This document shows positions 3,001 through 43,384 of a stretch of 64,000 bases of DNA, piece by piece. Source of the stretch: Paracyclopina nana (Eukaryota > Arthropoda > Copepoda > Cyclopoida > Cyclopettidae); the NCBI GenBank assembly GCA_019096065.1, contig JAGUCH010000003.1, positions 10,540,001 to 10,604,000 on the forward strand, read 5' to 3'. The first letter of the stretch is position 1. Each line of letters starts with the position of its first letter. The translations under genes and the position numbers were made by a program. A model generated the notes under the pieces. It was not told where the DNA came from, searched no databases, and was given only the letters and a program-made list of their open reading frames with translations.

Positions 3001-6000
3001 TGGTGCAATATGTTTTATAGATACTAACTATAGCGCAATATCATTTTTATGGACTATTGCTCAATTGGCGGAATGTCAAACGGTCACGAGGGTGGGCGTG
3101 TAATTCTCGTTTGCATTGATGTTCCGGATAAAATCGAGAGTTTACACAGTGAGCCATAAATAATAGTGCTTGGAGCTGAATTCCCATTAGCTATAAGGAA
3201 CAGCTTCAAATGAAAGGAGACATCTCTTAAAGAAAAAGTGCACAACCGCGCAAGGTCGAGTGTGAAACGACGATCTAAGAACGACATTCTACTCGCGCAT
3301 CCAGCTAAATAGTGTACAACCAGCCCAGCCAAAAATGAGCCTTCTGCATTAGAAGTGCTGATAAAATTCCTCGGACTGACTGTACATAAAAAGGGATGAC
3401 GATTAGCCTTGAACCTTAGACCAGAAATCTTATGTAGTACATCAAGAAGCCACGCTTGAATTTCACACATGAAGGCATTAAGGGTTGTAATTTGAACTTG
3501 ACCCCCCTTTTTTATCATTCTGATTTTTAAAAGGGGAAAAACTTGAATTGCTAATTAAAAGTCATGTCAAAAGTTCTTTTCCTTTTTTGCAAGGAAATGA
3601 GGGCAAAAAGAGTCTCTCCAAAATTAAGCAATTAGCAGCTGAAGCAAAAAAGAGAAGAACTAGTGCTTGATTAATTAAAGATGGAAAAAGTTACGCAAAC
3701 TCAGTTCAGGCGTTTTCCATCATTTTTGGCTCTTTTCAGGCAGTTGCATCTTGCGCGGCTGAACATGTCAACAAAACAAACGGATAATGATGAATCATGA
3801 CAGGAGTCTGAACTAGGGTGAAAATCCAGCCTAGACTGAGTGAAAAAAATGCGTCTACCTCCCGACAGCCTCTTAAAATCGAGCTTTAGGCGCCAAAACT
3901 AGACCGAAAATGCCAGATTATGTGGTCATCTGCCAACTCCAGAATGAATCACAGTAAACACGTAATTTTGCATAGCATTACAAATTGTGCTGAGGTTGCC
4001 AGATGGTTTTATGAATTGTGGCCAAAATCAGGCCAAAAAAGCCAAATGGCTCATTTTTATCCTCAATTTTGTACACAAAGAAGGCGTTTTGAGGTCATGT
4101 TCCGCCATTTTTCAGAGTGGGTAAACCGCAACCTTTTTGTAATGTGAGAAAAGCGACGGTGGCAACCGAGACAAAAAGTGAAATTTTTTTTCTTACTGTT
4201 GTTTCCTCAAATGTTCCACTTTGCACTCGCGTGAGGAATCAATTCTTGGGCCGGAATTCAATAATATTTCACGCATCCATTTTGGAATTCTTCCTTCAAT
4301 ATAAATTCAATTTCATGATTGCCTTTTTTTGCGCTGGATCACACACGCGCGTTGTTATATAACCTCACATGCAGCCAATTACTGGAAAAGGGGAGGTCTA
4401 ATGGGATTTTTTAATGGTCAGGCCCTAACGATCTCATAACCGTTTTAAATGGCATTTTTTGCAGAATATCAAGGCTTATCTTCGTGAGGGGAAAAAGCAG
4501 CAGTTGGAGAATGCAAATAGATTCCCACCCACTGCTGACTTGATTGCTATGAGAAAATTATTCCTCAGAAAGAAAATGGAATGACCCTATATACTTGGCA
4601 TGCCCTTATTATTATGCATGGAACAATTATCACTCAGTGGGGATTTCAGCACCTGCTCAGCCCAAAAAAGTGAGCTATTTCTAATTTTCCAAATGCAAAA
4701 AAAACCCACATTTTTAAATGTTTTTTTTTTTGGTCTCCTCAATAATTCACTGATTAGGGTAAATCTGGAGTATAAAAGTTAATATATGGAGACAAATGGG
4801 ACTTGTGATGTGGACGAGGATCCGGAAGGTTTAATTTAGGCCTTTTTGGCTTGAATTATGGGACTTGCTCCTGCAAGAGGTGCTATTATAATTTAGGGCC
4901 CAATTATTGATGTGTTTGTGACCACCAGAGTGGCGTTATTCAAGGGTTGCAAGGCCATCTTTGCCATTTCTCATAATGGGGTTTAATCTGCATTTGAAAA
5001 ATGGCTTTGCAGCCATTTGTAAAGCCCGACCTGATTGTGATTGTGATGGGAAGAAAAAAGATCATTAAAAGCACATTTCCCTTACTAATATATAATGGCA
5101 TGAATTCGTGATCTACTTTGGGTGACTCTTTAGTTTCTCTCTCTTTAGAGCCGAATACAAAGGCACTGAAAACATCGTTCCCCACCAGCCCAAAAATCCT
5201 GCAATTCCAAAAATCATGTTTTGGCCGGTGGGGTAATGATATGGATTTTATTGCTGTGTAGGTTAGAAAAAATGGGAAGCCACAAAATTTTAAATTAGCT
5301 TTTATTTGGTTGGTCGGGCACTACTATATAGATATTGCTGTATCTCTTAGTAGCACGAAATGAGACTGCAAAAAAGTCTCTTTGCTCAGTAGACCCCTCT
5401 TTTTTATCCCTTTTTCCTTCCTTTTGCTCAATGCAGTCTCACTTTGCTGTAATAATCATCTGATGCTTATCTCTTATACTCTTTTCTGCGCAAATCCCGA
5501 CCAAAAATAATGGCAATTTGTCTGAGCTTCCCGGCTCTAAATCCTAAATTCCAAGCCCATTTCTCAATCATATTATAACAGGCTGCAAAGCCAAAATTAC
5601 CCAAAAAATACATTCCCTCATGCTTTCTTTTTCGATAATTTATGAGGCCTGCCAAGTTGGCATCGAGCCTTATGCCCTGTTCATGTATTAAGAATGCCTC
5701 AAGGTATGGAAAAAATTGTCATAAGGAAAAGTGAATCTGTTGCTGACTGCCGCTCTACAAGTTCAGCTTGGGGCCGAGCAGCGTTTTTAATGGCAATTTT
5801 TGCTATTTTATCTCATGGTTTTCAGCACATTTCAACACAAACTATCTTTCATCATGTTTCTTTCATAAAAGATGAAATTTAACTTTTGATTTTGCTCAAA
5901 AGGGCTAAGATGTGGAGCACTTATTAGCCAAAATTAGATTTGTTTACTTTCAAGTTGGCTTAAAGTCGATCTGATTTTTTTAGTATCAGCTGGCGCTTGT

Positions 6001-9000
6001 CATAAGACAATTTTTCTCCTTTCCTTGAGGTGTTTTTCGTGCATTTTCCTAAGGAGTTTGGGGCGTACATGAACAGGACATTAGAACTAGAAGATGAAAT
6101 ATTACAGCTGAGTTTTGTCTTTGGGAGAAAAATGCTACGTAGCAATGCTGACCATTAGGTGGGATTTGCCATCCAAATCCAGACGATGTTTCCTTGATCC
6201 TCCCCCTTTTTGTTGAACATGCACTTTAGTATGTTATATAGAGTACATACATCGTTTACGAGCATATGGCACGAAAATGAGGCCGCCAGTTGTATATATC
6301 TCTTGATTAGGTGTCAATATTTCATTCATAAGACTGCATTGCTGCTGTACAAAAAGATTCTGCTATGTCGAAAAACAAGGCAAAAAGATGAGGCCTTTTT
6401 TGGAAAAAAAATTATTCCTCGGGAAATATCAAGGTTGATTTTGTTTTGGCAACAATTATTTTGCCAAAGGTAAACAATCATTCATTGCCACACTTCTTCT
6501 AATGCTTTGACTCTTTTTACACCTTTCTCCTCTCCATTCCATTTGTCAAAAAAGGACAGCCTTTTTTCGTAGTCTCAGCTTGACTGCTGCGCAAAGAGAT
6601 CCGTACGTCCGCAGAACTCAGCACAACGTGCTGGTGAACGGTGTGACCTTTCATCAGTATTCAGCATGCTGAAAGCTCATTTTCGTTTTAAGTGTAATTT
6701 TCTAAAATAAGAATGCCAAACGTGCAAAGAATTTCAGCTCTGTATTCTTAAGAAGCCTAGGTCTCTCTCAGCAAACTGTGATCTGTCTTTGGTATTAGAT
6801 TTCCACTCAAGTCTTCGAGAAGGTTTGCGTTTTCGTGGCTCTTTTTGGCTTGCTAAAAGAAGCCTTTTTGTTCTTATTTTAGAGCTTTCTGCTCCATTTT
6901 TGAGAAGTTTTATTAATGATCCAAGTTTGCTTCTGATATAATGAGAGCATTTTGCAATTTTGTAATTGAGTTGGAAAGCAAGTTTTCTGCCGCCAAATCG
7001 TCATTTCGTTATCCAGGTCAGAGTATTTATCCATGAATGGCTGATCAAAGAAAATCCGGGAAAAGCACACAAATGCTCGTTGAGCTTTTTTGAGCAAAAC
7101 CAAGCAAATACAAAGGGAGTTGCCATGCATAAATGCAGGCTAAAACTCGACTAAGAAAGTTCCCCAATAAAAGATCCAATATAAGGATGCTTTCAGAAGT
7201 TGTAACAGAGGAAAAAGTTGTGAAATATGATTGCACTCTAGTTTCAGACTTTTTCCCTCAAAAAGAGTCCCCCGTTAGATTAATGAAGCGAGACGAGAGA
7301 CAAAAAGTGTGACACTTTGTGTGGCCCCAATGCCAAATAAGTGGTTATATATACCATACTTTCACGGATCAATCCTTTTCCATTTATCTATAGAGCAAGT
7401 ATAGATAACTTGAAGCTTAAAATACTGAGGAATTGCTTTGTTTACTTATAGCGCGCGCCGGGAAGGAGAGCGCTCTATATGATGCGCACGCCGGGAAAGA
7501 GAGCGCTCTATTTAATGCGTGCTGGGAAAGAGCGCGTTCATTTAGGAGCGCGCTTGTTTTCACTGGGAAAAAGGGACTTCTTGATTTTTTCCATTTAACT
7601 GTTCAATGATGGGAAAAGCTGGAAGCTTAAAAGCACACGCCGGGAAAGAGAGCGCTCAGTATGAAACGCACGCCGGCAATAGGCACGCTTTTCTTTATTG
7701 TTGTTGTCACTTCCCGGAAAAAAGAGGGTAGGTAGCTGATGTAATTTCTAAGAGAAACATGAGCCTTTGAGGTTAAAAGAGGGGAGACTGAAAAGGAAAA
7801 TCATTTGTCCTCCATTTTTTGCTATGAAGATGGCAGTGTGCGTTCTGCCAAAAAAGGAAATGCAATAAGTATACTAATGTAGCAATATCATTACTTTTCC
7901 CAAAAATATCTTTTTCTTTGTGAAAATGCTGCAATAATCAAATGTCCTCTTCTTGGCCAAAAAACGAGGTTAACCATGGAAGCAAAAGCTGGGAGGAAAT
8001 TACCACGATTAATGGTGTGTCTCTTTCAGTTTTCCGACTTCCTGACTGGTATATAAACCCAATATAACCGCGGTATATGTATAGCTCTGGTTTTAATCAT
8101 GGTGTAAAGTATAGGATTTTTTATCCATTCAGGATCGGGAGGAAAAGTGGGTATTTATTCAATTGTGGTAACAATGCAAAAAATATGGTCAAGCCAAAAT
8201 CGAGCATGGAATCCGAGTCTAACCAAGCTGAATGGTATACCATTTTAGCTTGCTCATTCTCCTTTTAAAGATATACCCGTAGATAATGACAATGCACACG
8301 TAGGTATACAAATGAGATTATAGATATTGATGAATTACCATGCTTCATTTCTCACTGTACTGAATACAATCAATTTGCGAAATGCATTTTGAAGGCTGAA
8401 AATGAGCTCTTTTTCTGTATGTGGTATAAGGATAATAATTATTATGGTAAACAGATGAGCGGAAGGTGCATTAGTAATCAGCAATGCATTGTTTTCCCGA
8501 TTTTATCACATCCTTTTTTGGCAAATATCTTCACACGATGCTGTATCATCATCATCCGCCTCTTTGGCACATTTAGATTCCAATGTGGAATTTATACCTT
8601 GGAAAACTTCTTCATTTTGGCGAGATGAAATTGAATGGTAGCTTCATCTTGCATTTCTCCCACTTTTCGGCTTAATGTGGGAAAAAGGGTGAATGGTGGA
8701 AGAAGGTGTGAGATTTTGTTCTCCACGTCGACGTCTTATCGATCTGGTGACTTTTTTTGCGCAGGATTGATGGCCATGTCATTCGCACACCTTTATACTA
8801 ATATTCCAGGTGCTGCTGCTAAACTGATAAATTCGTTATTCCAAGTGGCAGAATGCAAATGAAGCTGGTTTTCCTATCGCACTTCGAAATCAGAGGCTCG
8901 TTCTTTTATTCAATTTTAACAGTTTTCTCTTGTTTAATATGGGAAAAATAATTTTTAGTGCATGATATAAATAAAAGTGATTGGTAAAAGTTACTTAAAA

Positions 9001-17889: not shown

Positions 17890-18323
17890 ATGAAACGTTA
17901 GAATCTAGTTTTAAAAATGTGCCGAAATGTAAAGAGTACTTTGGGATTTGCGTAAAGGTTTCGTGATTATGTGATTACTTTCTTCCGCTGGATTTTCAAC
18001 AATTTCCTCTCATTTCAACCAAGATTGAAGAGACGTACGTTTTACTCCTTTTAAAATGTATGATTCCTGAAAATGCTGCATAACTTCTAAAACAGTTTTC
18101 CTTTTCTTAGCAAGAATTATGATATATTTTAAAAAATCTAACTATCAAAAACACGAGCTAGATAATTTATTGTTGCGACAAACTAACTCTAAAAAAACTG
18201 ACCTCTGCTACGAAAAAATTATTATTTGCTTGGCGGCAACATACATTCAAAAGATAGCAATTTTGTGTCAAATCTTGGATGGGAAAACTCTGGCAAATAG
18301 TTATGTCAATTCGTGGCAATTAT
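17890..18323. other. Intergenic DNA left of the outer foldback element
   Basis: AT-rich, with no supported gene. It ends in AATTAT at 18318-18323, which is matched by AATTAT at 31313-31318 on the far side of the outer element and is the candidate target duplication. Confidence 0.5.
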
Positions 18324-18429
18324 GGGTAACACTCTCATGTTCAGCGCACAAAAATGCTCAAATTGACATAGATATCAAATAAAAAAACACAAAAAGTCTG
18401 AGCAGGGCACATACAATCAAAATTTTTCT

Positions 18430-20160
18430 TTCCCAATCACCACCCAAATTTGATTTTGGATTTGGTCTTTTTTTCTGATCACCACCCATCACCACCCAAA
18501 TATGATTTTGGATTTGGTCTTTTTTTTCTGATCACCACCCATCACCACCCAAATATGAATTTCGTTTTGCCTCTTTTTTCCCAATCACCACCCATCACCA
18601 CCCAAACTGATTTTGTATTTGGTCTTTTTTTTCTAATCACCACCCATCACCACCCAAATATGATTTTGGATTTGGTCTTTTTTTCAGATCACCACCCAAA
18701 TTTGAATTTCATTTTGCCTCTTTTTTCCCAATCACCACCCATCACCACCCAAACTGATTTTGGATTTGGTCTTTTTTTTCTGATCACCACCCATCACCAC
18801 CCAAACTGATTTTGGATTTGGTCTTTTTTTTCTGATCACCACCCATCACCACCCAAATTTGAATTTCTTTTTGCCTCTTTTTTCCCAATCACCACCCATC
18901 ACCACCCAAATATGATTTTGGATTTGGTCTTTTTTTTCTGATCACCACCCATCACCACCCAAACTGATTTTGGATTTGGTCTTTTTTTTCTGATCACCAC
19001 CCATCACCACCCAAACTGATTTTGGATTTGGTCTTTTTTTTCTGATCACCACCCATCACCACCCAAATATGATTTTGGATTTGGTCTTTTTTTTCTGATC
19101 ACCACCCATCACCACCCAAATATGATTTTGGATTTGGTCTTTCTTTCAGATCACCACCCAAATTTGAATTTCATTTTGCCTCTTTTTTCCCAATCACCAC
19201 CCATCACCACCCAAACTGATTTTGGATTTGGTCTTTTTTTTCTGATCACCACCCATCACCACCCAAACTGATTTTGGATTTGGTCTTTTTTTTCTGATCA
19301 CCACCCATCACCACCCAAATTTGAATTTCGTTTTGCCTCTTTTTTCCCAATCACCACCCATCACCACCCAAATATGATTTTGGATTTGGTCTTTTTTTTC
19401 TGATCACCACCCATCACCACCCAAACTGATTTTGGATTTGGTCTTTTTTTTCTGATCACCACCCATCACCACCCAAACTGATTTTGGATTTGGTCTTTTT
19501 TTTCTGATCACCACCCATCACCACCCAAATATGATTTTGGATTTGGTCTTTTTTTTCTGATCACCACCCATCACCACCCAAATATGAATTTCGTTTTTGC
19601 CTCTTTTTTCCCAATCACCACCAATCACCACCCAAATTTGATTTTGGATTTGGTCTTTTTTTCTGATCACCACCCATCACCACCCACACTGATTTTGGAT
19701 TTGGTCTTTTTTTCTGATCACCACCCATCACCACCCAAATATGAATTTCGTTTTGCCTCTTTTTTCCCAATCACCACCCATCACCACCCAAATATGATTT
19801 TGGATTTGGTCTTTTTTTTCTGATCACCACCCATCACCACCCAAATATGATTTTGGATTTGGTCTTTTTTTTTCTGATCACCACCCATCACCACCCAATT
19901 ATGAATTTCGTTTTTGCCTCTTTTTTCTGATCACCACCCATCACCACCCAAATATGATTTTGGATTTGGTCTTTTTTTCTGATCACCACCCATCACCACC
20001 CAAATATGATTTTGGATTTGGTCTTTTTTTCTGATCACCACCCATCACCACCCAAATATGATTTTGGATTTGGTCTTTTTTTCTGATCACCACCCATCAC
20101 CACCCAAATTTGAGTTTCATTTTACCTCTTTTTTCCCAATCACCACCCATCACCACCCAG
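18430..20160 (+). repeat. Left arm of the outer element: tandem repeat, about 50-56 bp unit
   Basis: Two interleaved unit types share the core ATCACCACCCATCACCACCC. One continues with ATTTTGGATTTGGTC and a T run ending TCTGATC; the other continues with GAATTTCGTTTTGCCTC and TTTTTTCCCAATC. The open frames here (for example 18,450-18,809) arise from the repeat and are not genes. Confidence 0.95.
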
Positions 20161-20592
20161 ACTATGCTAAAGTTAGCACTATGACAAATTCAAAATTAGT
20201 CAAAACATGGTGAAAAAATGCAAAACTTTGTAAAACGTTGTCAAAAATACAATTTTGCTCAGGCAAATATGCTCTCTTCATCTACAAACTCCTTAAGGAA
20301 TCGGAACTCAAAATTCCTTTGCGCCAAAGAGTTCTCAGTACATAAATTAGCTGCGTAGAGTTGTATGCATGGATTTGTCACAACCCCACAAAACAAATCC
20401 GCAAACCATACCGATTTGATCCTAATTTAGTACGTATTTTTGATCAGTATTCTTGTTACAAGAATATACCTAAAAGCGTAACACAACTGTTTCATAAAAT
20501 TTTTGCGAAATCCTGATCTCTAAAACTTATCGCTATCAACTTAATTTCATTTTTATTTTATCCTATGGCATGCATGTGTGAAAATAATACAT
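20161..20592. other. Outer-element core, left part, with one diverged 157-bp-type unit
   Basis: Between arm and inner insertion. About 20,196-20,265 (GTCAAAACATGGTGAAAAAA ... TGTCAAAAATACAATTTTGC) aligns with the 157-bp unit of the inner element (GTCAAAACTAGATGAAAAAA ... TGTCAAAAATGCAATTTTGC). The rest is unique and non-coding. Confidence 0.65.
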
Positions 20593-20674
20593 GAATTTTT
20601 GGCCGCGACTGCATAGGCAGGGATCAAATGCAAGCAAAACTTAGATTTATTTTCACAAAAAATATAGATTACGC

Positions 20675-21797
20675 CGTGTGAACCCGTGTTTGGTGTGTTC
20701 GCCGTGTTCGGTGTGTTCAGTGTGTTCGGCTGTTCGCCGTGTTCGGTGTGTTCAGTGTGTTCGCCGTGTTCGGTGTGTTCGCCGTGTTCGCTGTGTTCGC
20801 TCGTGTTCGCTGTGTTCGCTCGTGTTCGCCCGTGTTCGTTGTGTTCGCTGTGTTCGCTCGTGTTCGCCCGTGTTCGGTGTGTTCGCCCGTGTTCGGTGTG
20901 TTCGCCGTGTTCGGTGTGTTCGCCCGTGTTCGGTGTGTTTGCCCGTGTTCAGTGTGTTCGGCCGTGTTCGGTGTGTTTGCCCGTGTTCGTTGTGTTCACC
21001 CGTGTTCGCCCGTGTTCGTTGTGTTCACCCGTGTTCGGTGTGTTCGCCGTGTTCGGTGTGTTCGCCCGTGTTCGGTGTGTTCGCCCGTGTTCGGTGTGTT
21101 CGCCCGTGTTCGCTGTGTTCGCCCGTGTTCGCTGTGTTCGGCCGTGTTCGCTGTGTTCGGCCGTGTTCGCCCGTGTTCGCCCGTGTTCGGTGTGTTCGCC
21201 CGTGTTCGGTGTGTTCGCCCGTGTTCGGTGTGTTCGCCCGTGTTCGGTGTGTTCGCCCGTGTTCGGTTGTTCGCCGTGTTCGGTGTGTTCGGTGTGTTCG
21301 CCGTGTTCGGTGTGTTCGCCCGTGTTCGGTGTGTTCGCCCGTGTTCAGTGTGTTCGGCCGTGTTCGGTGTGTTCGCCCGTGTTCGTTGTGTTCACCCGTG
21401 TTCGCCCGTGTTCGTTGTGTTCACCCGTGTTCGGTGTGTTCGCCGTGTTCGCTGTGTTCGCCTGTGTTCGCTGTGTTCCCCCTTTTTCGCTGTGTTCGCC
21501 CGTGTTCGCCCGTGTTCACTGTGTTCGCCCGTGTTCGCTGTGTTCGCCCGTGTTCGCCCGTGTTCGCCCGTGTTCGCCCGTGTTCGCCCGTGTTCGCTGT
21601 GTTCGCCCGTGTTTGGTGTGTTCGCCCGTGTTCGGTGTGTTCGCCCGTGTTCGGTGTGTTCGCCCGTGTTCGGTGTGTTCGCCCGTGTTCGGTGTGTTCG
21701 CCCGTGTTCGGTGTGTTCGCCCGTGTTCGGTGTGTTCGCCCGTGTTCGCTGTGTTCGGCCGTGTTCGCTGTGTTCGCTGCGTTCGCCCGTATTCGCT
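20675..21797 (+). repeat. Left arm of the inner element: GTGTTCGCC/GTGTTCGGT tandem repeat
   Basis: About 9-10-bp units GTGTTCGCC, GTGTTCGGT, GTGTTCGCT and GTGTTCGTT are repeated for 1.1 kb. All three plus-strand frames stay open only because the unit has no stop codon, so long Cys/Val/Phe-rich frames appear without being genes. A block around 20,945-21,060 is repeated about 400 bp later (near 21,343), a higher-order duplication within the arm. Confidence 0.95.
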
Positions 21798-21818
21798 GCT
21801 AGTTTCAGTTCTAATTTT

Positions 21819-23000
21819 GCACTAGGAGACCAGTCATGTCAAAACTAGATGAAAAAGGCCACAGTTTGGTCTTTGTCAAAAATGCAATTTTGCTCTAGCA
21901 ATTATTCACGTTACGCGTGTTTCGCTCCAAGCTCAAAAAGTTGCAAAAAATATGCTATTTTCAGATCTTATTTTGCACTAGGAGACCAGTCATGTCAAAA
22001 CTAGATGAAAAAAAGGCCACAGTTTGGTCTTTGTCAAAAATGCAATTTTGCTCTAGCAATTATTCACGTTACGCGAGTTTCGCTCCAAGCTCAAAAAGTT
22101 GCAAAAATATGCTATTTTCAGATCTTATTTTGCACTAGGAGACCAGTCATGTCAAAACTAGATGAAAAAAGGCCAAAGTTTGGTCTTTGTCAAAAATGCA
22201 ATTTTGCTCTAGCAATTATTCACGTTACGCGTGTTTCGCTCCAAGCTCAAAAAGTTGCAAAAAAATATGCCAGTTTCAGATCTTATTTTGCACTAGGAGA
22301 CCAGTCATGTCAAAACTAGATGAAAAAAAGGCCAAAGTTTGGTCTTTGTCAAAAAATGCAATTTTGCTCTAGCAATTATTCACGTTACGCGAGTTTCGCT
22401 CCAAGCTCAAAAAGTTGCAAAAATATGCTATTTTCAGATCTTATTTTGCACTAGGAGACCAGTCATGTCAAAACTAGATGAAAAAAAAGGCCAAAGTTTG
22501 GTCTTTGTCAAAAATGCTATTTTGCTCTTGCAATTATTCACGTTACGCGAGTTTCGCTCCAAGCTCAAAAAGTTGCAAAAAATATGCTATTTTCAGATCT
22601 TATTTTGCACTAGGAGACCAGTCATGCCAAAACTAGATGAAAAAAAGGCCAAAGTTAGGTCTTTTGCAAAAAATGCAATTTTGCTCTATCAATTATTCAC
22701 GTTACGCGTGTTTCTCTCAAATCTCAAAAGGTTGCAAAAAAATATGCCAGTTTCAGATCTTATTTTGCACTCGGAGACCAGTCATGTCAAAACTAGATGA
22801 AAAAAAGGCCAAAGTTTGGCCTTTGTCAAAAAATGCAATTTTGCTCTAGCAATTATTCACGTTACGCGTGTTTCGCTCCAAGCTCAAAAAGTTGCAAAAA
22901 AATATGCTATTTTCAGATCTTATTTTGCACTAGGAGACCAGTCTTGTCAAAACTAGATGAAAAAAAGGCCAAAGTTTGGCCTTTGTCAAAAAATGCAATT
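21819..23000 (+). repeat. 157-bp tandem array, eight copies, inner-element core
   Basis: Each unit opens with GCACTAGGAGACCAGTCATG or a one-base variant. Units start at 21,819, 21,975, 22,132, 22,290, 22,448, 22,607, 22,767 and 22,927, so the period is 156-160 bp; the last copy is partial. Short open frames crossing the copies are repeat artefacts. Confidence 0.95.
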
Positions 23001-24060
23001 AAAAAGTAGAAGTACCGCGCGATGCGCAAGTTTTCACCCTTGCGAACTCAAAAAGAGTCAACAGTTTAGTAAAAGCTTAGTAGAAGAGTCTATTTCAGAG
23101 ATAGCAGACAAAATTTGATCTAACACATCTTTTAGCTTCAAAAAGTGCCAAATTCAAAATGCACACATATATTCGTGCGCACTGTAGCACTGATAGGACG
23201 AGTGGTTAAAGGAAGGACGTATGTAGCACTGATGGACAAATTGACCACTCGGCCAGGGGGGTCTCGTAAGCGAGTTCTTGACGCAAGTTTTGCATGCTAA
23301 AATCGCCAAATCTGTTCGTCTTAGCTGCGGTGGCGCTAGTAGTTCTTACTACATAGCGCGTGAGCTCAAATGACGTCAGTGATGGAAGCGAGCGGGCTAA
23401 TCTCTCGCTTTTTAAACAGAGCTCCCAGATAAGTTCAGTTTTTGTCAAAAAGTATGCAATTGTGGCACATTTTGCTAATTTATTGTGGGTTATGGAAATT
23501 TTTGGAAGTGAAATCCACAGAATTCTATTGAAATTTCGTCTTGAAGCCTACCACAGCTCAGTCAGACTGTGCGCTATAGTAAAGCAGCGATAAGAACTCA
23601 CCTTATAAGTATAGATCATCTTGCACTCGGCGATTTCTCAGCTCCTGGTGATCAGAGGGAGCTGGGGTAATTTTTTTCTGAAACTAGACCCTAAAATCTA
23701 TCATTTTGCCAAGTTTCATCAAAATCTGAGACATTCTATTTTTATTGTACACTGATGGGACCTTTTGGTTTTTTTATACACTGATGGGACTCAGTCTGAC
23801 TTTTCCTATCTTATTATACACTGATGGGACATGCAATAAGACCACTCCATAATGAGACATGAATGGCTATGACCACTCCACAGTAAGACCTTTAAAAGCC
23901 TCTTTTAACAGCAAGGTCAAAGGCACATCAAAAGTTTGACTTTGGCTCATTATCTTCCACGATAAGATAATGAGCCTTTGCCTCATAGTTTGAGTCAAGT
24001 TGACCCAAACTATCAAAATTGACTTGGTCAAGAATTTCATGATTTATAAGAAGTAAAGTT
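23001..24060. other. Spacer between the two core arrays of the inner element
   Basis: Mostly unique. It begins and ends with fragments of the 169-bp unit in inverted orientation (GTACCGCGCGATGCGCAAG near 23,011 and GTACCGCGCGATCCGCAAG near 24,066). It also contains three copies of ACACTGATGGGAC (near 23,749, 23,778 and 23,818), two related CACTGATRGGAC copies near 23,184-23,230, a 13-bp-stem hairpin at 23,946-23,977 and a tRNA A-box-like sequence on the minus strand at 23,245-23,255. No protein-coding signal. Confidence 0.7.
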
Positions 24061-25013
24061 AAAGTACCGCGCGATCCGCAAGTTTTCACTCTTCCGAATT
24101 CAAAATAAATCAATAAGTTTCGGCATTTGCGAATTCAAAAAGTGTAGTAAGTTTGAGTTTGCCTCACATTTTGAGTCAAGTTGACTCAAACTTTTGATTC
24201 ATTTTGAATTCGCTAGAGAGAAAACCTGCGCATCGCGCGGTACTTCTACTTTACTGCTAATAAAACACGAAATTCTTGACCAAGTCAAATTTCAGTCAAA
24301 ATGTCAATTGCAGTTGATAGTTTGGGTCAACTTGACTCAAAATATGAGGCAAAGTCAAACTTACTACACTTTTTGAATTCGCAAATGCCGAAACTTGCGC
24401 ATCGCGTTATGCTACTAGGTGACTGCTATGAAAACGCGAAATTCTTGACCAAGTCAAATTTCAGTCAAAATGTCAGTTGCAGCTGAAAGTTTGAGTCAAC
24501 TTGACTCAAAATGTGAGGCAAAGTCAAACTTTTGATTCATTTTGATTTCGCAAATGCCGAAACTTGCGCTTCGCGTTATGCTACTAGGTGACTGCTATGA
24601 AAACGCGAAATTCTTGACCAAGTCAAATTTCAGTCAAAATGTCAGTTGCAGCTGATAGTTTGAGTCAACTTGACTCAAAATATGAGGCAAAGTCAAACTT
24701 ACTACACTTTTTGAATTCGCAAATGCCGAAACTTGCGCATCGCGTTATGCTACTAGGTGACTGCTATGAAAACGCGAAATTCTTGACCAAGTCAAATTTC
24801 AGTCAAAATGTCAGTTGCAGCTGAAAGTTTGAGTCAACTTGACTCAAAATGTGAGGCAAAGTCAAACTTTTGATTCATTTTGATTTCGCAAATGCCGAAA
24901 CTTGCGCTTCGCGTTATGCTACTAGGTGACTGCTATGAAAACGCGAAATTCTTGACTGAGTCAAATTTCAGTCAAAATGTCAGTTGCAGCTGATAGTTTG
25001 AGTCAACTTGACT
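24061..25013 (+). repeat. 169-bp tandem array, inner-element core
   Basis: Units beginning at TGTCARTTGCAGYTGA occur near 24,302, 24,472, 24,640, 24,810 and 24,979 (168-170 bp apart). Each contains GAGTCAACTTGACTCAAAAT and CTTGCGCATCGCG or close variants. The first part (24,061-24,240) has an inverted copy facing the rest. The last unit runs directly into the right arm at GACTCAACAGCGAACGC. Confidence 0.92.
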
Positions 25014-26545
25014 CAACAGCGAACGCGGCCGAACACAGCGAACACGGCCGAACACAGCGAACACGGCCGAACACAGCGAACACGGCCGAACACAGCGAAC
25101 ACGGCCGAACACAGCGAACACGGGCGAACACAGCGAACACCGGCGAACACAGCGAACACAGCGAACACGGCCGAACACAGCGAACACATTCGAACACAGC
25201 GAACGCGGCCGAACACAGCGAACACGGCCGAACACAGCGAACACGGCCGAACACAGCGAACACGGCGGAACACAGCGAACACGGCCGAACACAGCGAACA
25301 CGGCCGAACACAGCGCACACGGCCAAACACAGCGAACACGGGGAAACACCGCGAACACCGGCGAACCCAGCGAACACAGCGAACACGGCCGAACACAGCA
25401 AACACATTCGAACACAGCGAACACGGCCGAACACAGCGAACACGGCCGAACACAGCGAACCCCGCCGAACACAGCGAACACGGCCGAACACAGCAAACAC
25501 GGCCGAACACACCGAACACGGGCGAACACGGGCGAACACGGGCGAACACGGGCGAACACGGGCGAACACAGCGAACACGGGCGAACACAGTGAACACGGG
25601 CGAACACGGGCGAACACAGCGAAAACGGGCGAACACAGCGAACACGGGCGAACACACCGAACACGGCGAACACACCGAACACGGGTGAACACAACGAACA
25701 CGGGCGAACACGGGTGAACACAACGAACACGGGCGAACACACCGAACACGGCCGAACACACTGAACACGGGCGAACACACCGAACACGGGCGAACACACC
25801 GAACACGGCGAACACACCCAACACGGACGAACACACCGAACACGGGCGAACACACCGAACAGGGTGAACACACCGAACACGGGCGAACACACCGAACACG
25901 GGCGAACACACCGAACACGGGCGAACACGGGCGAACACGGCCGAACACAGCGAACACGGCCGAACACAGCGAACACGGGCGAACACACCGAACACGGGCG
26001 AACACACCGAACACGGGCGAACACACCGAACACGGCGAACACACCGAACACGGGTGAACACAACGAACACGGGCGAACACGGGTGAACACAACGAACACG
26101 GGCAAACACACCGAACACGGCCGAACACACTGAACACGGGCAAACACACCGAACACGGGCGAACACACCGAACACGGCGAACACACCGAACACGGGCGAA
26201 CACACCGAACACGGGCGAACACGAGCGAACACAGCGAACACAACGAACACGGGCGAACACGAGCGAACACAGCGAACACGTGCGAACACAGCGAACACGG
26301 CCGAACACAGCGAACACGGCCGAACACAGCGAACACATTCGAACACAGCGAACACGGCCGAACACAGCGAACACGGCCGAACACAGCGAACACGGCCGAA
26401 CACAGCAAACACGGCCGAACACATCGAACACGGCCGAACACAGCGAACACGGCCGAACACAGCGAACACGGCCGAACACAGCGAACACGGCCGAACACAG
26501 CGAACACGGCCGAACACAGCGAACATGGGTGAACTCGGGCATACA
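25014..26545 (-). repeat. Right arm of the inner element: inverted GTGTTCG-type tandem repeat
   Basis: Reverse complement of the left-arm repeat (GGGCGAACACACCGAACAC and variants) for 1.5 kb. The order of variant units in one stretch matches that in the left arm over several hundred bases, so the arms are homologous copies. All three minus-strand frames, and several plus-strand ones, are open for up to 524 codons because the unit lacks stops. Confidence 0.95.
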
Positions 26546-26710
26546 CAGCGAAACAATTCTAAGTTTTGCTTGCATTTGATCCCTGCCTATGCAGTCGCGG
26601 CCGAATTTTTTTGTTTCATAAATTATTATAGATAGTATTAATAATTTAATTTATAAATTAACAGTATTGAATCTGTTTTAAAAGTGTTTTCATCTAATAA
26701 AAGACTTATT

Positions 26711-27094
26711 AGCTTGTTCTCATAAACATTTCTATAAGGCAAGCAAGGCACTTTGTGCGCTTATATCTCAGCATCTACTCGTCCGATTGGAACCAAATTT
26801 GGAGGAATTCATAAGGACATATTGAAGAATCTTCATGCCAATTTTCATCCGGATCGGAGGACGCTAAGGCCGCCTTACTGAAAGTGAGGCAAATCAGCTA
26901 AGCAAGGGAGAAAAATCAGCCACCTCCTTAGAGTTCTCCGATCCTGATGAAATTTTGCATGAACATTCTTCAATATGCTCTAATGAATACCTCCAAATTT
27001 GGTTCCAATCGGCTCAGTACTTACTGAGTTATGAGCTTCCAAAGTGCCTTGCTTTGCTTACTGCCTGCCTTACTGAGTTTTATGAGAACAAGCT
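26711..27094. mobile_element. 384-bp palindromic MITE, copy 1
   Basis: Near-complete palindrome with termini AGCTTGTTCTCATAAA and its reverse complement, and arms of about 190 bp. Flanked by ATT on both sides (26,708-26,710 and 27,095-27,097). A second copy of exactly the same length lies at 53,378-53,761 in opposite orientation. It sits in the core of the outer foldback element. Confidence 0.9.
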
Positions 27095-27290
27095 ATTAAT
27101 TAATCATTTACGCTACGCTAGTTTTGCTCCTTGACCGAAAAGTTGTTGCTAAAAATATTCTAGTTTATGTCAGATTTTGCACTGGGAGACTGATGGACCT
27201 GGACTTCCCAAGATCCTAACAACTATAACCAGAATGAGCACAACTTGCTAGCTCAAAGTCAGTTTTATTTAAGAACTCTTGAATTTTAAG
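27095..27290 (+). repeat. Diverged 157-bp-type unit in the outer-element core
   Basis: The stretch ATCATTTACGCTACGCTAGT then TTTGCTCC ... TTTTGCACTGGGAGACTGAT (to about 27,205) aligns with the inner element's 157-bp unit (ATTATTCACGTTACGCGAGT ... TTTTGCACTAGGAGACCAGT). It immediately precedes the 169-bp array, the same order as in the inner element. Confidence 0.75.
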
Positions 27291-29635
27291 TCAAAATGTC
27301 AGTTGCAGCTGTTAGTGTGAGTCAACTTGACTCAAAATTTGAGGCAAAGTCAACCTTTTTTTGATTTTGAGCTAGCAAGAGCTAAAACTTGGGCATCACA
27401 TTATACTACCAATTAATTGCTGAAAAAAATTGAATTTCTTGACAAAAGTCAATTTTGAGTCAAAGTGTTGGTTGCCACTGATAGTGTGAGTCAACTTGAC
27501 TAAAAACTTGAGGAGAAGTGAAACTTCTGACTCATTTTGAGTTCGCAAGAGTGAAAACTTGCGCATCGCTAGATGCTATGTATTTATCTCATAGTGCTGC
27601 TAGTAAACTTCTAAGAAAATACGAAATTATGGATAAGGTCAATTTTGAGTCAAAATGTCTATAATGGCTGATAATTTGAGGCATTTGGACCCTAAATGTG
27701 AGGCAAAGTCAAGCTTTGACTCATTTTTGACTATGCTAGAAATAAAAACTATTGAGAAAATGCAAAATTCTGGACTTGTCAATTTTGAGTCAAAATGATA
27801 ATTTGAGGCATTTGGACTCTAAATGTGAGGCAAAGTCACGCTTTGACTTATTTTTGACTATGAGAGAAATAAAAACTTACGCATCCCGTAACGCTAGTAA
27901 TAAACTATTGAGAAAATGCAAAATTCTGGACTAGTCAATTTTGAGTCAAAATGTCAGTAGTGGCTGATAATTTGAGGCATTTGGACCCTAAATGTGAGGC
28001 AAAGTCAAGCTTTGACTTATTTTTGACTATGAGAGAAATAAAAACTTACGCATCGCGTAACGCTGCTAATAAACTACTAAGAAAATGCAAAATTCTGGAC
28101 TAGTCAATTTTGAGTCAAAATGTCAGTAGTGGCTGATAATTTGAGGCATCTGGACTCTAAATGTGAGGCAAAGTCAAGCTTTGACTTATTTTTGACTATG
28201 AGAGAAATAAAAACTTACGCATCCCGTAACGCTAGTAATAAACTATTGAGAAAATGCAAAATTCTGGACTAGTCAATTTTGAGTCAAAATGTCAGTAGTG
28301 GCTGATAATTTGAGGCATTTGGACCCTAAATGTGAGGCAAAGTCAAGCTTTGACTTATTTTTGACTATGAGAGAAATAAAAACTTACGCATCGCGTAACG
28401 CTGCTAATAAACTACTAAGAAAATGCAAAATTCTGGACTAGTCAATTTTGAGTCAAAATGTCAGTAGTGGCTGATAATTTGAGGCATCTGGACTCTAAAT
28501 GTGAGGCAAAGTCAAGCTTTGACTTATTTTTGACTATGAGAGAAATAAAAACTTACGCATCCCGTAACGCTAGTAATAAACTATTGAGAAAATGCAAAAT
28601 TCTGGACTAGTCAATTTTGAGTCAAAATGTCAGTAGTGGCTGATAATTTGAGGCATTTGGACCCTAAATGTGAGGCAAAGTCAAGCTTTGACTTATTTTT
28701 GACTATGAGAGAGCCAAAACTTGCGCATCGCGTAATGCTGCTAATAAACTACTAAGAAAATGCAAAATTCTGGACTAGTCAATTTTGAGTCAAAATGTCA
28801 GTAGTGGCTGATAATTTGAGGCATTTGGACCCTAAATGTGAGGCAAAGTCAAGCTTTGACTTATTTTTGACTATGAGAGAGCCAAAACTTGCGCATCGCG
28901 TAATGCTGCTAATAAACTACTAAGAAAATGCAAAATTCTGGACTAGTCAATTTTGAGTCAAAATGTCAGTAGTGGCTGATAATTTGAGGCATTTGGACCC
29001 TAAATGTGAGGCAAAGTCAAGCTTTGACTTATTTTTGACTATGAGAGAGCCAAAACTTGCGCATCGCGTAATGCTGCTAATAAACTACTAAGAAAATGCA
29101 AAATTCTGGACTAGTCAATTTTGAGTCAAAATGTCAGTAGTGGCTGATAATTTGAGGCATCTGGACCCTAAATGTGAGGCAAAGTCAAGCTTTGACTTAT
29201 TTTTGACTATGAGAGAGCCAAAACTTGCGCATCGCGTAATGCTGCTAATAAACTACTAAGAAAATGCAAAATTCTGGACTAGTCAATTTTGAGTCAAAAT
29301 GTCAGTAGTGGCTGATAATTTGAGGCATCTGGACCCTAAATGTGAGGCAAAGTCATGCTTTGACTTATTTTTGACTATGAGATAAATAAAAACTTGCGCA
29401 TCGCGTAATGCTGCTAATAAACTATTGAGAAAATGCAAAATTCTGGACTAGTCAATTTTGAGTCGAAATGTCAGTAGTGGCTGATAATTTGAGGCATCTG
29501 GACCCTAAATGTGAAGCAAAGTCAAACTTTGACTCATTTTTGACTATGCGAGAGCCAAATTTTGCGCATCGCGAAATGCTTTACTTTTGCAAACTTTCAA
29601 ACTCAAAATGAGTCAAAAATCTCATATTTTGAGTC
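27291..29635 (+). repeat. 168/169-bp tandem array of the outer element, with a dimeric section
   Basis: At least 13 units, homologous to but diverged from the inner element's 169-bp repeat. The TGTCAGTAGTGGCTGATAAT start recurs at 27,952, 28,121, 28,290, 28,459, 28,628, 28,796, 28,964, 29,132, 29,300 and 29,469. From 27,952 to 28,628 two variants alternate (CCCGTAACGCTAGTAATAAA against GCGTAACGCTGCTAATAAAC), giving a 338-bp dimer; from 28,628 the units are uniform (GAGAGCCAAAACTTGCGCAT). Confidence 0.95.
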
Positions 29636-29640
29636 ATATT

Positions 29641-31195
29641 TTGGGTGGTGATCAGACAAAAAAGACCAAATCCAAAATCAGTTTGGGTGGTGATGGGTGG
29701 TGATTGGGAAAAAAGAGGCAAAATGAAATTCAAATTTGGGTGGTGATGGGTGGTGATCAGAAAAAAAAGACCAAATCCAAAATCAGTTTGGGTGGTGATG
29801 GGTGGTGATCAGAAAAAAAGACCAAATCCAAAATCAGTTTGGGTGGTGATGGGTGGTGATTGGGAAAAAAGAGGCAAAACGAAATTCAAATTTGGGTGGT
29901 GATGGGTGGTGATCAGAAAAAAAAGACCAAATCCAAAATCATATTTGGGTGGTGATGGGTGGTGATCAGAAAAAAAGACCAAATCCAAAATCAGTTTGGG
30001 TGGTGATGGGTGGTGATTGGGAAAAAAGAGGCAAAATGAAATTCAAATTTGGGTGGTGATGGGTGGTGATCAGAAAAAAAAGACCAAATCCAAAATCAGT
30101 TTGGGTGGTGATGGGTGGTGATCAGAAAAAAAGACCAAATCCAAAATCAGTTTGGGTGGTGATGGGTGGTGATTGGGAAAAAAGAGGCAAAACGAAATTC
30201 AAATTTGGGTGGTGATGGGTGGTGATCAGAAAAAAAAGACCAAATCCAAAATCAGTTTGGGTGGTGATGGGTGGTGATCAGAAAAAAAGACCAAATCCAA
30301 AATCAGTTTGGGTGGTGATGGGTGGTGATTGGGAAAAAAGAGGCAAAACGAAATTCAAATTTGGGTGGTGATGGGTGGTGATTGGGAAAAAAGAGGCAAA
30401 ACGAAATTCAAATTTGGGTGGTGATGGGTGGTGATCAGAAAAAAAGACCAAATCCAAAATCAGTTTGGGTGGTGATGGGTGGTGATTGGGAAAAAAGAGG
30501 CAAAATGAAATTCAAATTTGGGTGGTGATCTGAAAAAAAGACCAAATCCAAAATCAGTTTGGGTGGTGATGGGTGGTGATTGGGAAAAAAGAGGCAAAAC
30601 GAAATTCAAATTTGGGTGGTGATCTGAAAAAAAGACCAAATCCAAAATCATATTTGGGTGGTGATGGGTGGTGATCAGAAAAAAAGACCAAATCCAAAAT
30701 CAAATTTGGGTGGTGATTGGTGGTGATTGGGAAAAAAGAGGCAAAAACGAAATTCATATTTGGGTGGTGATGGGTGGTGATCAGAAAAAAAAGACCAAAT
30801 CCAAAATCATATTTGGGTGGTGATGGGTGGTGATCAGAAAAAAAGACCAAATCCAAAATCAGTTTGGGTGGTGATGGGTGGTGATTGGGAAAAAAGAGGC
30901 AAAACGAAATTCAAATTTGGGTGGTGATGGGTGGTGATCAGAAAAAAAAGACCAAATCCAAAATCAGTTTGGGTGGTGATGGGTGGTGATCAGAAAAAAA
31001 AGACCAAATCCAAAATCATATTTGGGTGGTGATGGGTGGTGATTGGGAAAAAAGAGGCAAAAAGAAATTCAAATTTGGGTGGTGATGGGTGGTGATCAGA
31101 AAAAAAAGACCAAATCCAAAATCATATTTGGGTGGTGATGGGTGGTGATCAGAAAAAAAGACACAATCCAAAATCATTTTGGGTGGTGATGGGTG
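29641..31195 (-). repeat. Right arm of the outer element: inverted ACCACCC-rich tandem repeat
   Basis: Reverse complement of the left-arm repeat (GGGTGGTGATGGGTGGTGAT followed by CAGAAAAAAAGACC or TGGGAAAAAAGAGGC). Minus-strand open frames such as 30,554-30,856 come from the repeat. Confidence 0.95.
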
Positions 31196-31312
31196 GTGGT
31201 TGGGAAAGAATAATTGTGATTTTATGTGCCCTGCTCAGACTTTTTGTGTTTTTTTATGTGATATCTATGTCAATTTGAGCATTTTTGTGCGCTGAACATG
31301 GGAGTGTTACCC

Positions 31313-32471
31313 AATTATGAATCAGTCAAAATTTTTTTTGCAACTTGCTAATATGAATCACGAGGCTTCCTCGTTTATTTATAGAAGAGCTTTCCAATTT
31401 CAACTGTCTTCCTATGCTCGTTTCCTTCGCATTTTTCCCTACTCCTGACTTTTGCAATTAATTCTCAAAGTGCAGGATCGAGCCACTAAATGGGCCTAAA
31501 TGTCAGAGCCAGAGATCTCCTCAGGTGAAATACTAGTAGTAGTCTATGGAAGCACCTTCTCCCAGAATATTCAGGGCACTATTGATCTCAACTTTTTAGC
31601 TTAGCAAAGAGTCTGGGAAAAAAGCCATCCATCATTATTATAAATGCATAGTAAATGAAACCCCTTTGGTTGTCTACTGTTTTATAGTATAATAGCACAA
31701 TATGGAAAGATCGAAGAGCATGTTTTTGACACTGCCAAGAAACATAAAATGGCTCCTAGATCGAGGTTGGCCACGCCCCCTGACGATTAAGGGCGCCATC
31801 AAGCATCTGAGGAGAAATTGAAAGAAATAGATAGGAACCTCTCCATAAATAGCACAAATGGAGCCTAGCAAAAATTCGAGGTTTTTTAATATGCAAAATT
31901 ATTTCAACGGATGATGTTCCACTTGCAAATATGCATTTTCCCCTTGTTAGCACTAATCCACAGTGGCCGATCGGGGGTGGTATTATGCATCATAAATCAC
32001 ACTGTTTTTGGTGCGATGAGTCATGAAATCTGTTTTAACTTTGGATACGGCGAGAGCTCTCCAATTCGCAGCTGAGTGTGAAATTTTCCAATGAAGCGAA
32101 ATTCGAGGTTGGCGTTATCATTATAATAGGAGCGTCTTGGCACAGTGAGGTCACCTGGCCAAAAAGCCCCCATAAAAATAAAGCCCATAAAATGTGGGCA
32201 AATCGGGCAATTAGTAAGCGCAAGAAAAAGGGGTGGAAAGGTTGTAGCTCATATTGGGAGTTTTTAGGGGACATTTGCCCCAGTGTGAGCCGATAGTAGT
32301 AAAGTGAAGTGTAGTGCTGTTGCATTTGGAGTCTTCATTACAGCAGCAACAGCAACAGAGGAGTTGAAATTCAATCATTGTGCACAAACCTGAAGTCATC
32401 CAAGTTGAAATTAGAAAGGCTGTCACCACAAATTGCAAAAGTTGGCTCATACATCTTGAAATAATACCATC
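31313..32471. other. Intergenic DNA upstream of the tetraspan gene
   Basis: No supported gene. It begins with the candidate target duplication of the outer element (AATTAT). Near 32,340 there is a CAGCAGCAACAGCAACAG run just upstream of the coding start, probably 5' UTR or promoter. No TATA box is clear. Confidence 0.45.
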
Positions 32472-43003: not shown

Positions 43004-43384
43004 AGGGCGGTCTCATATTCGTCAATTGGGCAAGGTAGGTGGACTCACCTTCCCACCTACCTAGGGTAGGTAGGTGAGGGTAGGCAGGTGAGGGTAGGCA
43101 GGTGGGTAGGTGGGTAACCTGGTAGCTTAGTGAACCAGTTAGTGCAGGCAATTTAAGTCAATTTTTTAAGCATAACAAAAAGCTGCTTCTACACAAAATG
43201 TCCTCTCGTGATTTCTGAGTCAAATTGACTTAACTTGCCTGCATACTAACTGGTTCACTAAGCTACTAGGTTACCCACCTACCCACCTGCCTACCCTCAC
43301 CTGCCTACCCTCACCTACCTACCCTAGGTAGGTGGGAAGGTGAGTCCACCTACCTTGCCCAATTGACGAATATGAGACCGCCCT
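43004..43384. mobile_element. 381-bp palindromic MITE with AGGGCGGTCTCAT ends
   Basis: Left end AGGGCGGTCTCATATTCGTC, right end its exact reverse complement; the arms run about 140 bp and contain several GGTAGGTGGG/AGGGTAGGCAGG repeats. Flanked by ATA on both sides (43,001-43,003 and 43,385-43,387), a possible 3-bp target duplication. No coding capacity. Confidence 0.85.

What the first reader, a model, noticed from the sequence alone, without database searches (positions are those of the whole stretch)
20161..29635. The nested elements share one core plan but have unrelated arm satellites
Inner core: 157-bp array, then 169-bp array. Outer core: diverged 157-type units (20,196-20,265 and 27,098-27,205), then a 168/169-bp array homologous to the inner one. 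Both cores have the same order and orientation, yet the terminal repeats and arm satellites differ completely. This suggests a modular family in which a conserved satellite core is repackaged between new inverted arms, or arms that turn over while the core persists. I know of no described system with this arrangement.
Basis: partly seen in the sequence, partly recalled or inferred. Interest (0 to 1): 0.87.

Follow-up and report, generated by a model that had tools for sequence, protein, structure and literature searches.

The report
Jumping genes sharing one swappable core
In this animal genome several families of mobile DNA with different repetitive arms carry related repetitive cores, and one pair of copies shows how nesting and recombination can fuse cores and leave mismatched arms.

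Summary
Window 18325-31311 is a Foldback-like DNA transposon (class I, 52-bp arms) with a second one (class II, 19-bp arms, 20601-26602) nested in its core; each has exact 8-bp target duplications. Genome searches found a third class whose members carry 101-105-, 110-, 131- or 27-bp arm satellites around the same 157-bp core, in part of them followed by the 169-bp array. Of 38 clusters of 157-bp repeats, 30 lie inside convergent terminal-repeat pairs covering 0.57% of the genome. Tips of all classes start GG and share AT-N3-CAG at fixed positions, suggesting one transposase lineage. Cores do not strictly follow arms: class II elements hold two 169 types split by a fully supported branch, and one has a 157 unit 98.6% identical to a class III unit. 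Two copies of one composite show a route: nested insertion, then fusion of the two homologous 157 arrays with loss of one arm. I call it a new variant of Foldback transposons; Galileo chimeras are the nearest precedent. No transposase was linked, and 23 of 39 clusters of 169-bp repeats remain unassigned.

The parts
18317..18324 (.). left target-site duplication CAATTATG of outer element
18325..18436 (+). left terminal inverted repeat of outer element (class I, GGTAACACTC...)
   Evidence: 28 other matches in the genome, 77-100% identical
18436..20159 (+). left arm: 52-bp satellite, about 33 copies
20196..20265 (+). remnant of 157-bp core unit in outer element
   Evidence: score 60, 0 of 1000 shuffles as high
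20266..20600 (+). outer-element core segment; its first part recurs at about 87-90% inside the 157 arrays of a class III element (L037)
20593..20600 (.). left target-site duplication GAATTTTT of inner element
20601..20652 (+). left terminal inverted repeat of inner element (class II, GGCCGCGACTGC...)
20683..21777 (+). left arm of inner element: 19-bp satellite
21797..23000 (+). 157-bp core array of inner element (7.6 copies)
23254..23623 (.). dispersed 370-bp repeat inserted in the inner core
   Evidence: genome copies match this stretch alone at 90-100%
24186..25016 (+). 169-bp core array of inner element (4.9 copies)
25016..26525 (-). right arm of inner element: 19-bp satellite, inverted
26551..26602 (-). 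right terminal inverted repeat of inner element
26603..26610 (.). right target-site duplication GAATTTTT of inner element
26704..27100 (.). palindromic short repeat inserted in the outer core; second copy at 53373-53768
   Evidence: matches the second copy on both strands
27098..27205 (+). second remnant of 157-bp core unit in outer element
   Evidence: score 58, 0 of 1000 shuffles as high
27282..27513 (+). diverged 169-type units at the start of the outer 169 array
27796..29553 (+). 169-bp core array of outer element (10.4 copies)
29642..31207 (-). right arm of outer element: 52/53-bp satellite, inverted
31200..31311 (-). right terminal inverted repeat of outer element
31312..31319 (.). right target-site duplication CAATTATG of outer element

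Best explanation
These are non-autonomous Foldback-like DNA transposons of at least three terminal-repeat classes that descend from one mobilisation system (GG start, AT-N3-CAG motif, 8-bp duplication). The termini are the transposition signal, the arms are fast-changing satellites, and the middle is a common satellite core of 157-bp units, often with a 169-bp array beside it. The elements insert into one another more often than chance. Once one element sits in another's core, the two homologous core arrays recombine; this deletes one terminus and arm and leaves a fused core between mismatched ends. Shown: anatomy, duplications, nesting, sharing of units across classes, and one before/after pair of such a fusion. 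Inferred: that repeating this step, with further transposition, produced the present set of arm and core combinations; that one transposase lineage serves all classes; and that arms grow by unequal exchange.
For: (1) Of 24 terminus pairs with both ends read and taken as one insertion, 22 have exact 8-bp duplications, 1 (L031) fits with a one-base slip, 1 (L022/L023) matches 7 of 8. (2) 30 of 38 clusters of 157 repeats lie inside convergent terminus pairs covering 0.57% of the genome. (3) Class III has one kind of terminus but four arm satellites (101-105, 110, 131, 27 bp) around 157 arrays. (4) 169 tree: class II units of the window and L030 lie apart from the one unit each of class II elements L020 and L031, which fall in the class I clade (support 100). 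(5) Class II element L031: its first full 157 unit is 94% like class II; its last five (2138-2776) are 90-99% like class III units held in a composite and 80-85% like other class II units; the best pair aligns at 98.6%. (6) Two copies of one composite: in C1:11034598-11057912 a class III element is nested in a 169 unit, both ends intact (TSD CATTTTGA). In C8:1295999-1315887 the outer 157 array (92-100% up to X4750) passes directly into the inner 157 array (94-100% from X4751); the intervening 169 units, inner left terminus and left arm are gone, and the class III ends left there have non-matching 8-bp flanks (ACTCAAAG, GAAATTCT, TCAAAATG), as a fusion predicts. (7) 6 of 56 terminus pairs are nested, 5 if the two composites count once; 0.32 expected, Poisson P 1e-6 or 2e-5. 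(8) Terminal motif: 9 columns of 30 beyond GG identical in three classes against 2.1 shuffled (fraction 0.0001); offset 0 is the best of 13 for all three class pairs.
Against: No transposase was linked to these ends. MULE matches lie at 5 places, all at least 167 kb from any of the 137 termini listed. The 157 tree mostly groups units by arm type (8 changes, least possible 3), so exchange between classes is not frequent; the trees rest on 158 and 169 columns with many weak forks. The core is not uniform: five loci of the 101-105-bp type read at 10 kb show no 169 array in the element, and three class II elements (L020, L031, C3:5677-5683 kb) have 169 units inverted relative to 157. 23 of 39 clusters of 169 repeats lie in no identified element. 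The terminal motif is not significant for classes I and II alone. The fusion in (6) is one event inside one composite, and arrays can be mis-assembled. The nesting excess could reflect shared insertion-tolerant regions.
Confidence: 0.72

Rival explanations
1. Plain vertical descent: one ancestral element had the core; the families split, and termini and arms diverged quickly while the core changed slowly. No exchange.
For: Shared terminal motif; 157 units cluster mostly by arm type; three weak arm similarities above all 200 shuffles: 105-110 bp, 110-131 bp, 19-63 bp.
Against: Termini, which a transposase should constrain, agree at 12-16 of 30 positions between classes, while many 157 units agree at 90-93% between classes II and III. 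Class II elements fall on both sides of a fully supported branch in the 169 tree. A fused array is seen directly.
Confidence: 0.15
2. The 157 and 169 repeats are independent dispersed satellites that the transposons picked up or landed in by chance.
For: 23 of 39 clusters of 169 repeats lie in no identified element.
Against: 30 of 38 clusters of 157 lie inside terminus pairs covering 0.57% of the genome; 5 of the other 8 are near a single terminus, 2 have the 27-bp arm, 1 has a 63-bp satellite beside it. Where a 169 array adjoins a 157 array outside the window's classes the order and orientation are the same in 6 of 6 loci.
Confidence: 0.07
3. The core persists because it has a function for the element (for example replication, small-RNA evasion or transposase binding), and selection rather than exchange keeps it alike.
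For: Many 157 units agree at 90% or more between classes II and III.
Against: Class I has only remnants of the 157 unit as its own, yet its copies have near-identical termini and exact duplications. Array length varies widely and part of the elements lack the 169 array. No function was tested.
Confidence: 0.06

Closest known systems
Galileo (Drosophila, P superfamily), D. mojavensis chimeric copies; PMC3573991, abstract and passages
   Same: [quoted passage not shown] exchange proposed to create new subfamilies.
   Different: 7-bp flanks; exchange among subfamilies of one transposon. Here diverged terminus classes and several arm satellites share core satellites, and a nested-fusion intermediate is visible.
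Tetris (D. virilis foldback element); PMC4079207, abstract and passages
   Same: Non-autonomous foldback, 8-10-bp duplications, about 220-bp tandem repeats in the terminal repeats, middle of variable composition.
   Different: One family; its satellite is in the arms and seeds longer arrays. Here the core satellite is shared between families and the arms differ.
Tm1 Mutator/Foldback family (Meloidogyne); PMC3169594, abstract and passages
   Same: Composite terminal repeats with variable numbers of short tandem repeats.
   Different: Mostly 9-bp duplications with 7-bp asymmetric tips; a transposase-encoding copy is known; no shared satellite core in the passages seen.
Satellite-carrying Helentrons of Crassostrea gigas; PMC7492417, search listing and start of abstract only
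   Same: Mobile elements disperse satellite-like arrays.
   Different: Here termini are inverted repeats with 8-bp duplications, not Helitron ends.

Membership tests
Foldback-type elements (a structural kind) | long inverted arms built of tandem repeats | tested here: met
   52-bp and 19-bp inverted arrays in the window; other arms
Foldback-type elements (a structural kind) | target-site duplication | tested here: met
   22 of 24 pairs exact at 8 bp; mismatched flanks at the fused class III ends in L024/L025
Foldback-type elements (a structural kind) | variable middle, no transposase gene in most copies | tested here: inconclusive
   no transposase recognised in the frames listed for some middles; Pfam was run on 8 frames only; introns could hide one
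Mutator superfamily | MULE transposase in an autonomous copy with these termini | tested here: inconclusive
   5 MULE matches in the genome, nearest listed terminus 167 kb away; their flanks could not be read
Mutator superfamily | duplication of about 8-11 bp (range recalled; Tetris was placed here on 8-10 bp) | tested here: met
   8 bp; consistent, not specific
P superfamily / Galileo | P-type (THAP) transposase | not tested
Merlin | IS1595-type DDE transposase | tested here: not met
   0 matches to PF12762 in the genome; the family rang in 1 of 14 control genomes
hAT | hAT dimerisation domain in the genome | tested here: inconclusive
   0 matches to PF05699, but no control genome rang
Helitron/Helentron | no target-site duplication and no terminal inverted repeat (definition recalled) | tested here: not met
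   duplications and terminal inverted repeats present

The most novel reading that the evidence does not exclude
A mobile-DNA system with interchangeable parts: one transposase lineage reads a minimal end (GG-N10-AT-N3-CAG), arm satellites are replaceable, and a common satellite core serves as the recombination platform that lets nested elements trade arms and cores and so generate new families.
Probability: 0.45. Interest if true: 0.78.

Novelty: new variant of a known kind. Interest (0 to 1): 0.62.

Why it matters
How new non-autonomous transposon families and dispersed satellites arise is often inferred from end products. Here one genome appears to hold successive states: intact nested insertion, fused core with mismatched ends, and separate families with related cores under different arms. 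That makes the origin of Foldback families, and the traffic between transposons and satellites, testable by comparing related species or strains.

Tried and rejected
Gypsy-type integrase as the transposase of the outer family: the 16-kb class I element (L022/L023) carries a gag-like frame (Pfam hits below cut-off), an integrase and an envelope-like frame, but the integrase part has 109 matches in the genome, many in longer frames, so I read it as a nested retrotransposon. Long class II middles as autonomous copies: L029 holds the same 90-aa frame at 785-1054 and 5808-6077 around frames that I take for a retroelement (no family search was run on them), and C7:1853856-1871450 contains an integrase match. 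I first took the core of L033 as belonging to its 9/18-bp-arm shell; it belongs to a nested class III element with its own duplication. I first counted identical 169 units as shared between class I and class III arms; most of those class I units lie in nested class III elements, so I do not use them. Homology between 157 and 169 units: not above shuffles. Merlin, hAT, MULE: see membership. Rfam at gathering thresholds: 0 matches in the window. Literature: among the titles and abstract starts listed by five searches (11 of 11; 15 of 40; 7 of 7; 0 papers; 12 of 21) I saw none on a satellite core shared by elements with different arms; only open-licence papers are searched. Organism: not identified. 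The named best hits of a KIF21-like protein begin with a tick and insects, the eight best being unnamed; a mite is only a guess.

Rows dropped before counts: one search gave 53 rows; 13 secondary rows starting at query position 11 or later were left out, 40 kept. One search added 2 termini of L033 to the 40, and 2 for the 27-bp type. Searches scored only the best 39 of 112 and 39 of 158 candidates and their rows were clustered by hand, so clusters are a sample. The 24 pairs for duplications leave out the class III ends of L024/L025, whose flanks do not match, and the outer class III end of L028, for which no partner was found.
Full report
What is there. The window is G000:C3:10540001-10604000 of a 92-Mb genome in 10 contigs. 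Bases 18325-31311 are one transposon with terminal inverted repeats GGTAACACTC..., inverted 52-bp satellite arms and the duplication CAATTATG on both sides. Inside its core, at 20601-26602, sits a second one with terminal repeats GGCCGCGACTGC..., inverted 19-bp arms and the duplication GAATTTTT. Remnants were tested against 1000 dinucleotide shuffles each (0 reached the score); the 169 match is 74-76% in its best alignments.

Copies elsewhere. The outer terminus has 29 matches and the inner 40, the window's own included; with two more class II ends from L033 they form 14 convergent pairs each. Reading the further class I copies gave a map in which those with termini over 95% alike have the same 52-bp arms and core parts. 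The three older class I elements, 16-23 kb with termini 77-79% similar, are composites.

A third class. A search with the 157 array (39 of 112 candidates scored) hit many loci without the class I or II ends searched. Six were read at 10 kb and 14 more by flanks of 0.6-1.1 kb. Ten carry the same satellite inverted on both sides, eight carry one on one side, one (L052/L053) carries the 27-bp type on one side and the 101-105-bp type on the other, and one (L044/L045) none; that last one lies in a 30-kb class III terminus pair. The satellites are of 101-105, 110, 131-133 and 27 bp, and one 63-bp type seen on one side only. The first four go with one kind of terminus, GGYAGTGGCCAG.... So one terminus class carries four arm satellites around 157 arrays, which is arm turnover. 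In L033 the 27-bp-arm element is nested in a class II shell with 9/18-bp arms, each with its own duplication.

How constant the core is. Beside the 157 array, a 169 array was seen in 6 of those 20 loci (131-, 110- and 27-bp types and L044/L045), in all 6 in the order and orientation of the window. It was not seen within the five 101-105-bp elements read at 10 kb, nor in some of the 131- and 27-bp ones; L035 and L047 have only short 169 pieces in both orientations. In class II, the window, L030 and the places C5:2037473-2047880 and C3:3165541-3171912 have the window's order and orientation, whereas L020, L031 and C3:5677-5683 kb have 169 inverted. The 157 unit is thus the common part, the 169 array a frequent companion.

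Tie between core and arms. Of 38 clusters of 157 repeats, 30 lie inside convergent terminus pairs, 5 within 25 kb of a single end, and 3 in neither. Of those 3, C9:3966653 has the 27-bp arm on both sides, C5:6711166 on one side, and C9:446512 the 63-bp satellite on one side. Pairs, the two longest being 30 and 53 kb, cover 0.57% of the genome. For 169 repeats the result is weaker: 14 of 39 inside, 2 near a single end, 23 unassigned; one of the 23 (C5:6708710-6710635) adjoins the 157 array at C5:6711166.

Termini. Between classes the ends show little local similarity (class I against three of the four class III types slightly above 200 shuffles, others not). Aligned without gaps from base 1, all seven end types share GG at 1-2, AT at 13-14 and CAG at 18-20. 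For one example of each class, 9 of 30 columns beyond GG agree in all three against 2.1 shuffled (fraction 0.0001 with the 131-bp type; 7 columns and 0.0031 with the 101-105-bp type). Class I against II alone is at 0.051. Offset 0 is the best of 13 offsets for all three class pairs. I infer one transposase lineage. Its superfamily is open: 5 MULE matches, none within 167 kb of a listed terminus; no Merlin; hAT uninformative.

Core history. The 157 tree (78 rows) mostly follows arms but needs 8 changes where 3 is the minimum; many forks are weak. Unit by unit, class II L031 starts with a unit 94% like class II, and its last five full units are 90-99% like class III units held in a composite and 80-85% like other class II units; the best pair aligns at 98.6%. 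In the 169 tree (97 rows) class II units of the window and L030 lie apart from the single units of class II elements L020 and L031, which fall in the class I clade behind a branch with support 100. No further termini were detected inside these two class II elements, so they do not look like simple nestings.

A route in two steps. C1:11034598-11057912 (Y) and C8:1295999-1315887 (X) are copies of one composite: class I shell, class III material in its core, and in Y a class III element inserted in a 169 unit with duplication CATTTTGA on both sides. X is 92-100% identical to Y's outer part from X3401 up to X4750, then from X4751 94-100% identical to Y's inner 157 array and 80-87% to the outer one. 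The outer 169 units, the inner left terminus and the inner left arm are missing. X also has a right end and arm of the 110-bp type without its left end, followed by sequence 100% identical to Y's inner 169 array in the two windows compared. The three class III ends in X have different 8-bp flanks, like the chimeric Galileo copies with non-matching flanks. The simplest reading is recombination between homologous arrays of nested elements, leaving mismatched ends around a fused core. Nesting itself is enriched: 6 of 56 pairs, 5 if X and Y count once, against 0.32 expected.

Place among known systems. Structurally these are Foldback elements; Tetris, Tm1 and Galileo are the nearest (passages read). 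Galileo shows exchange of termini and middles between subfamilies. A satellite core shared under several arm satellites and diverged termini was not seen in the listings of five literature searches. Main limits: a sample of candidates, no autonomous copy, short units for phylogeny, reliance on one assembly, organism unknown.

Noticed in passing
L022:5482-9900 and L023:2-1864: Retroelement nested in an old class I element: gag-like (weak), integrase and envelope-like frames; the envelope pieces match the Pfam family Monjiviricetes_fusion (E 2e-21 and 2e-50). The integrase part has 109 matches in the genome.
   Followed up: partly
window 26704-27100 and 53373-53768: Two copies (95%) of a palindromic element of about 395 bp, one inside the outer transposon core.
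   Followed up: no
window 23254-23623: Dispersed 370-bp repeat inserted in the inner core; the search with the 1180-base query that holds it had 731 first-look candidates.
   Followed up: no
L011:3071-7095: A class I element inserted in the 52-bp arm of another class I element (duplication CTTTTTTT).
   Followed up: yes
L052 and L053 (C1:15386400-15391850): 27-bp arm on the left and 101-105-bp arm on the right of one 157 region, with a class III end inside it: possibly one element nested in the 157 array of another.
   Followed up: no
L029:785-6077: Retroelement-like insertion with the same 90-aa frame near both ends, filling a class II element.
   Followed up: partly
L023:5183-6200: Short tandem repeat with open frames in several phases between two stretches of 52-bp arm.
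   Followed up: no
window 43063-43104 and 43284-43325: A 14-bp minisatellite and its inverted copy about 180 bp apart.
   Followed up: no
L014:2769-6956, L010:3247-5925, L035:3574-4284: Extra core segments with 171-bp repeats shared by two class I copies; part is 83-90% identical to the core region of a class III element.
   Followed up: partly
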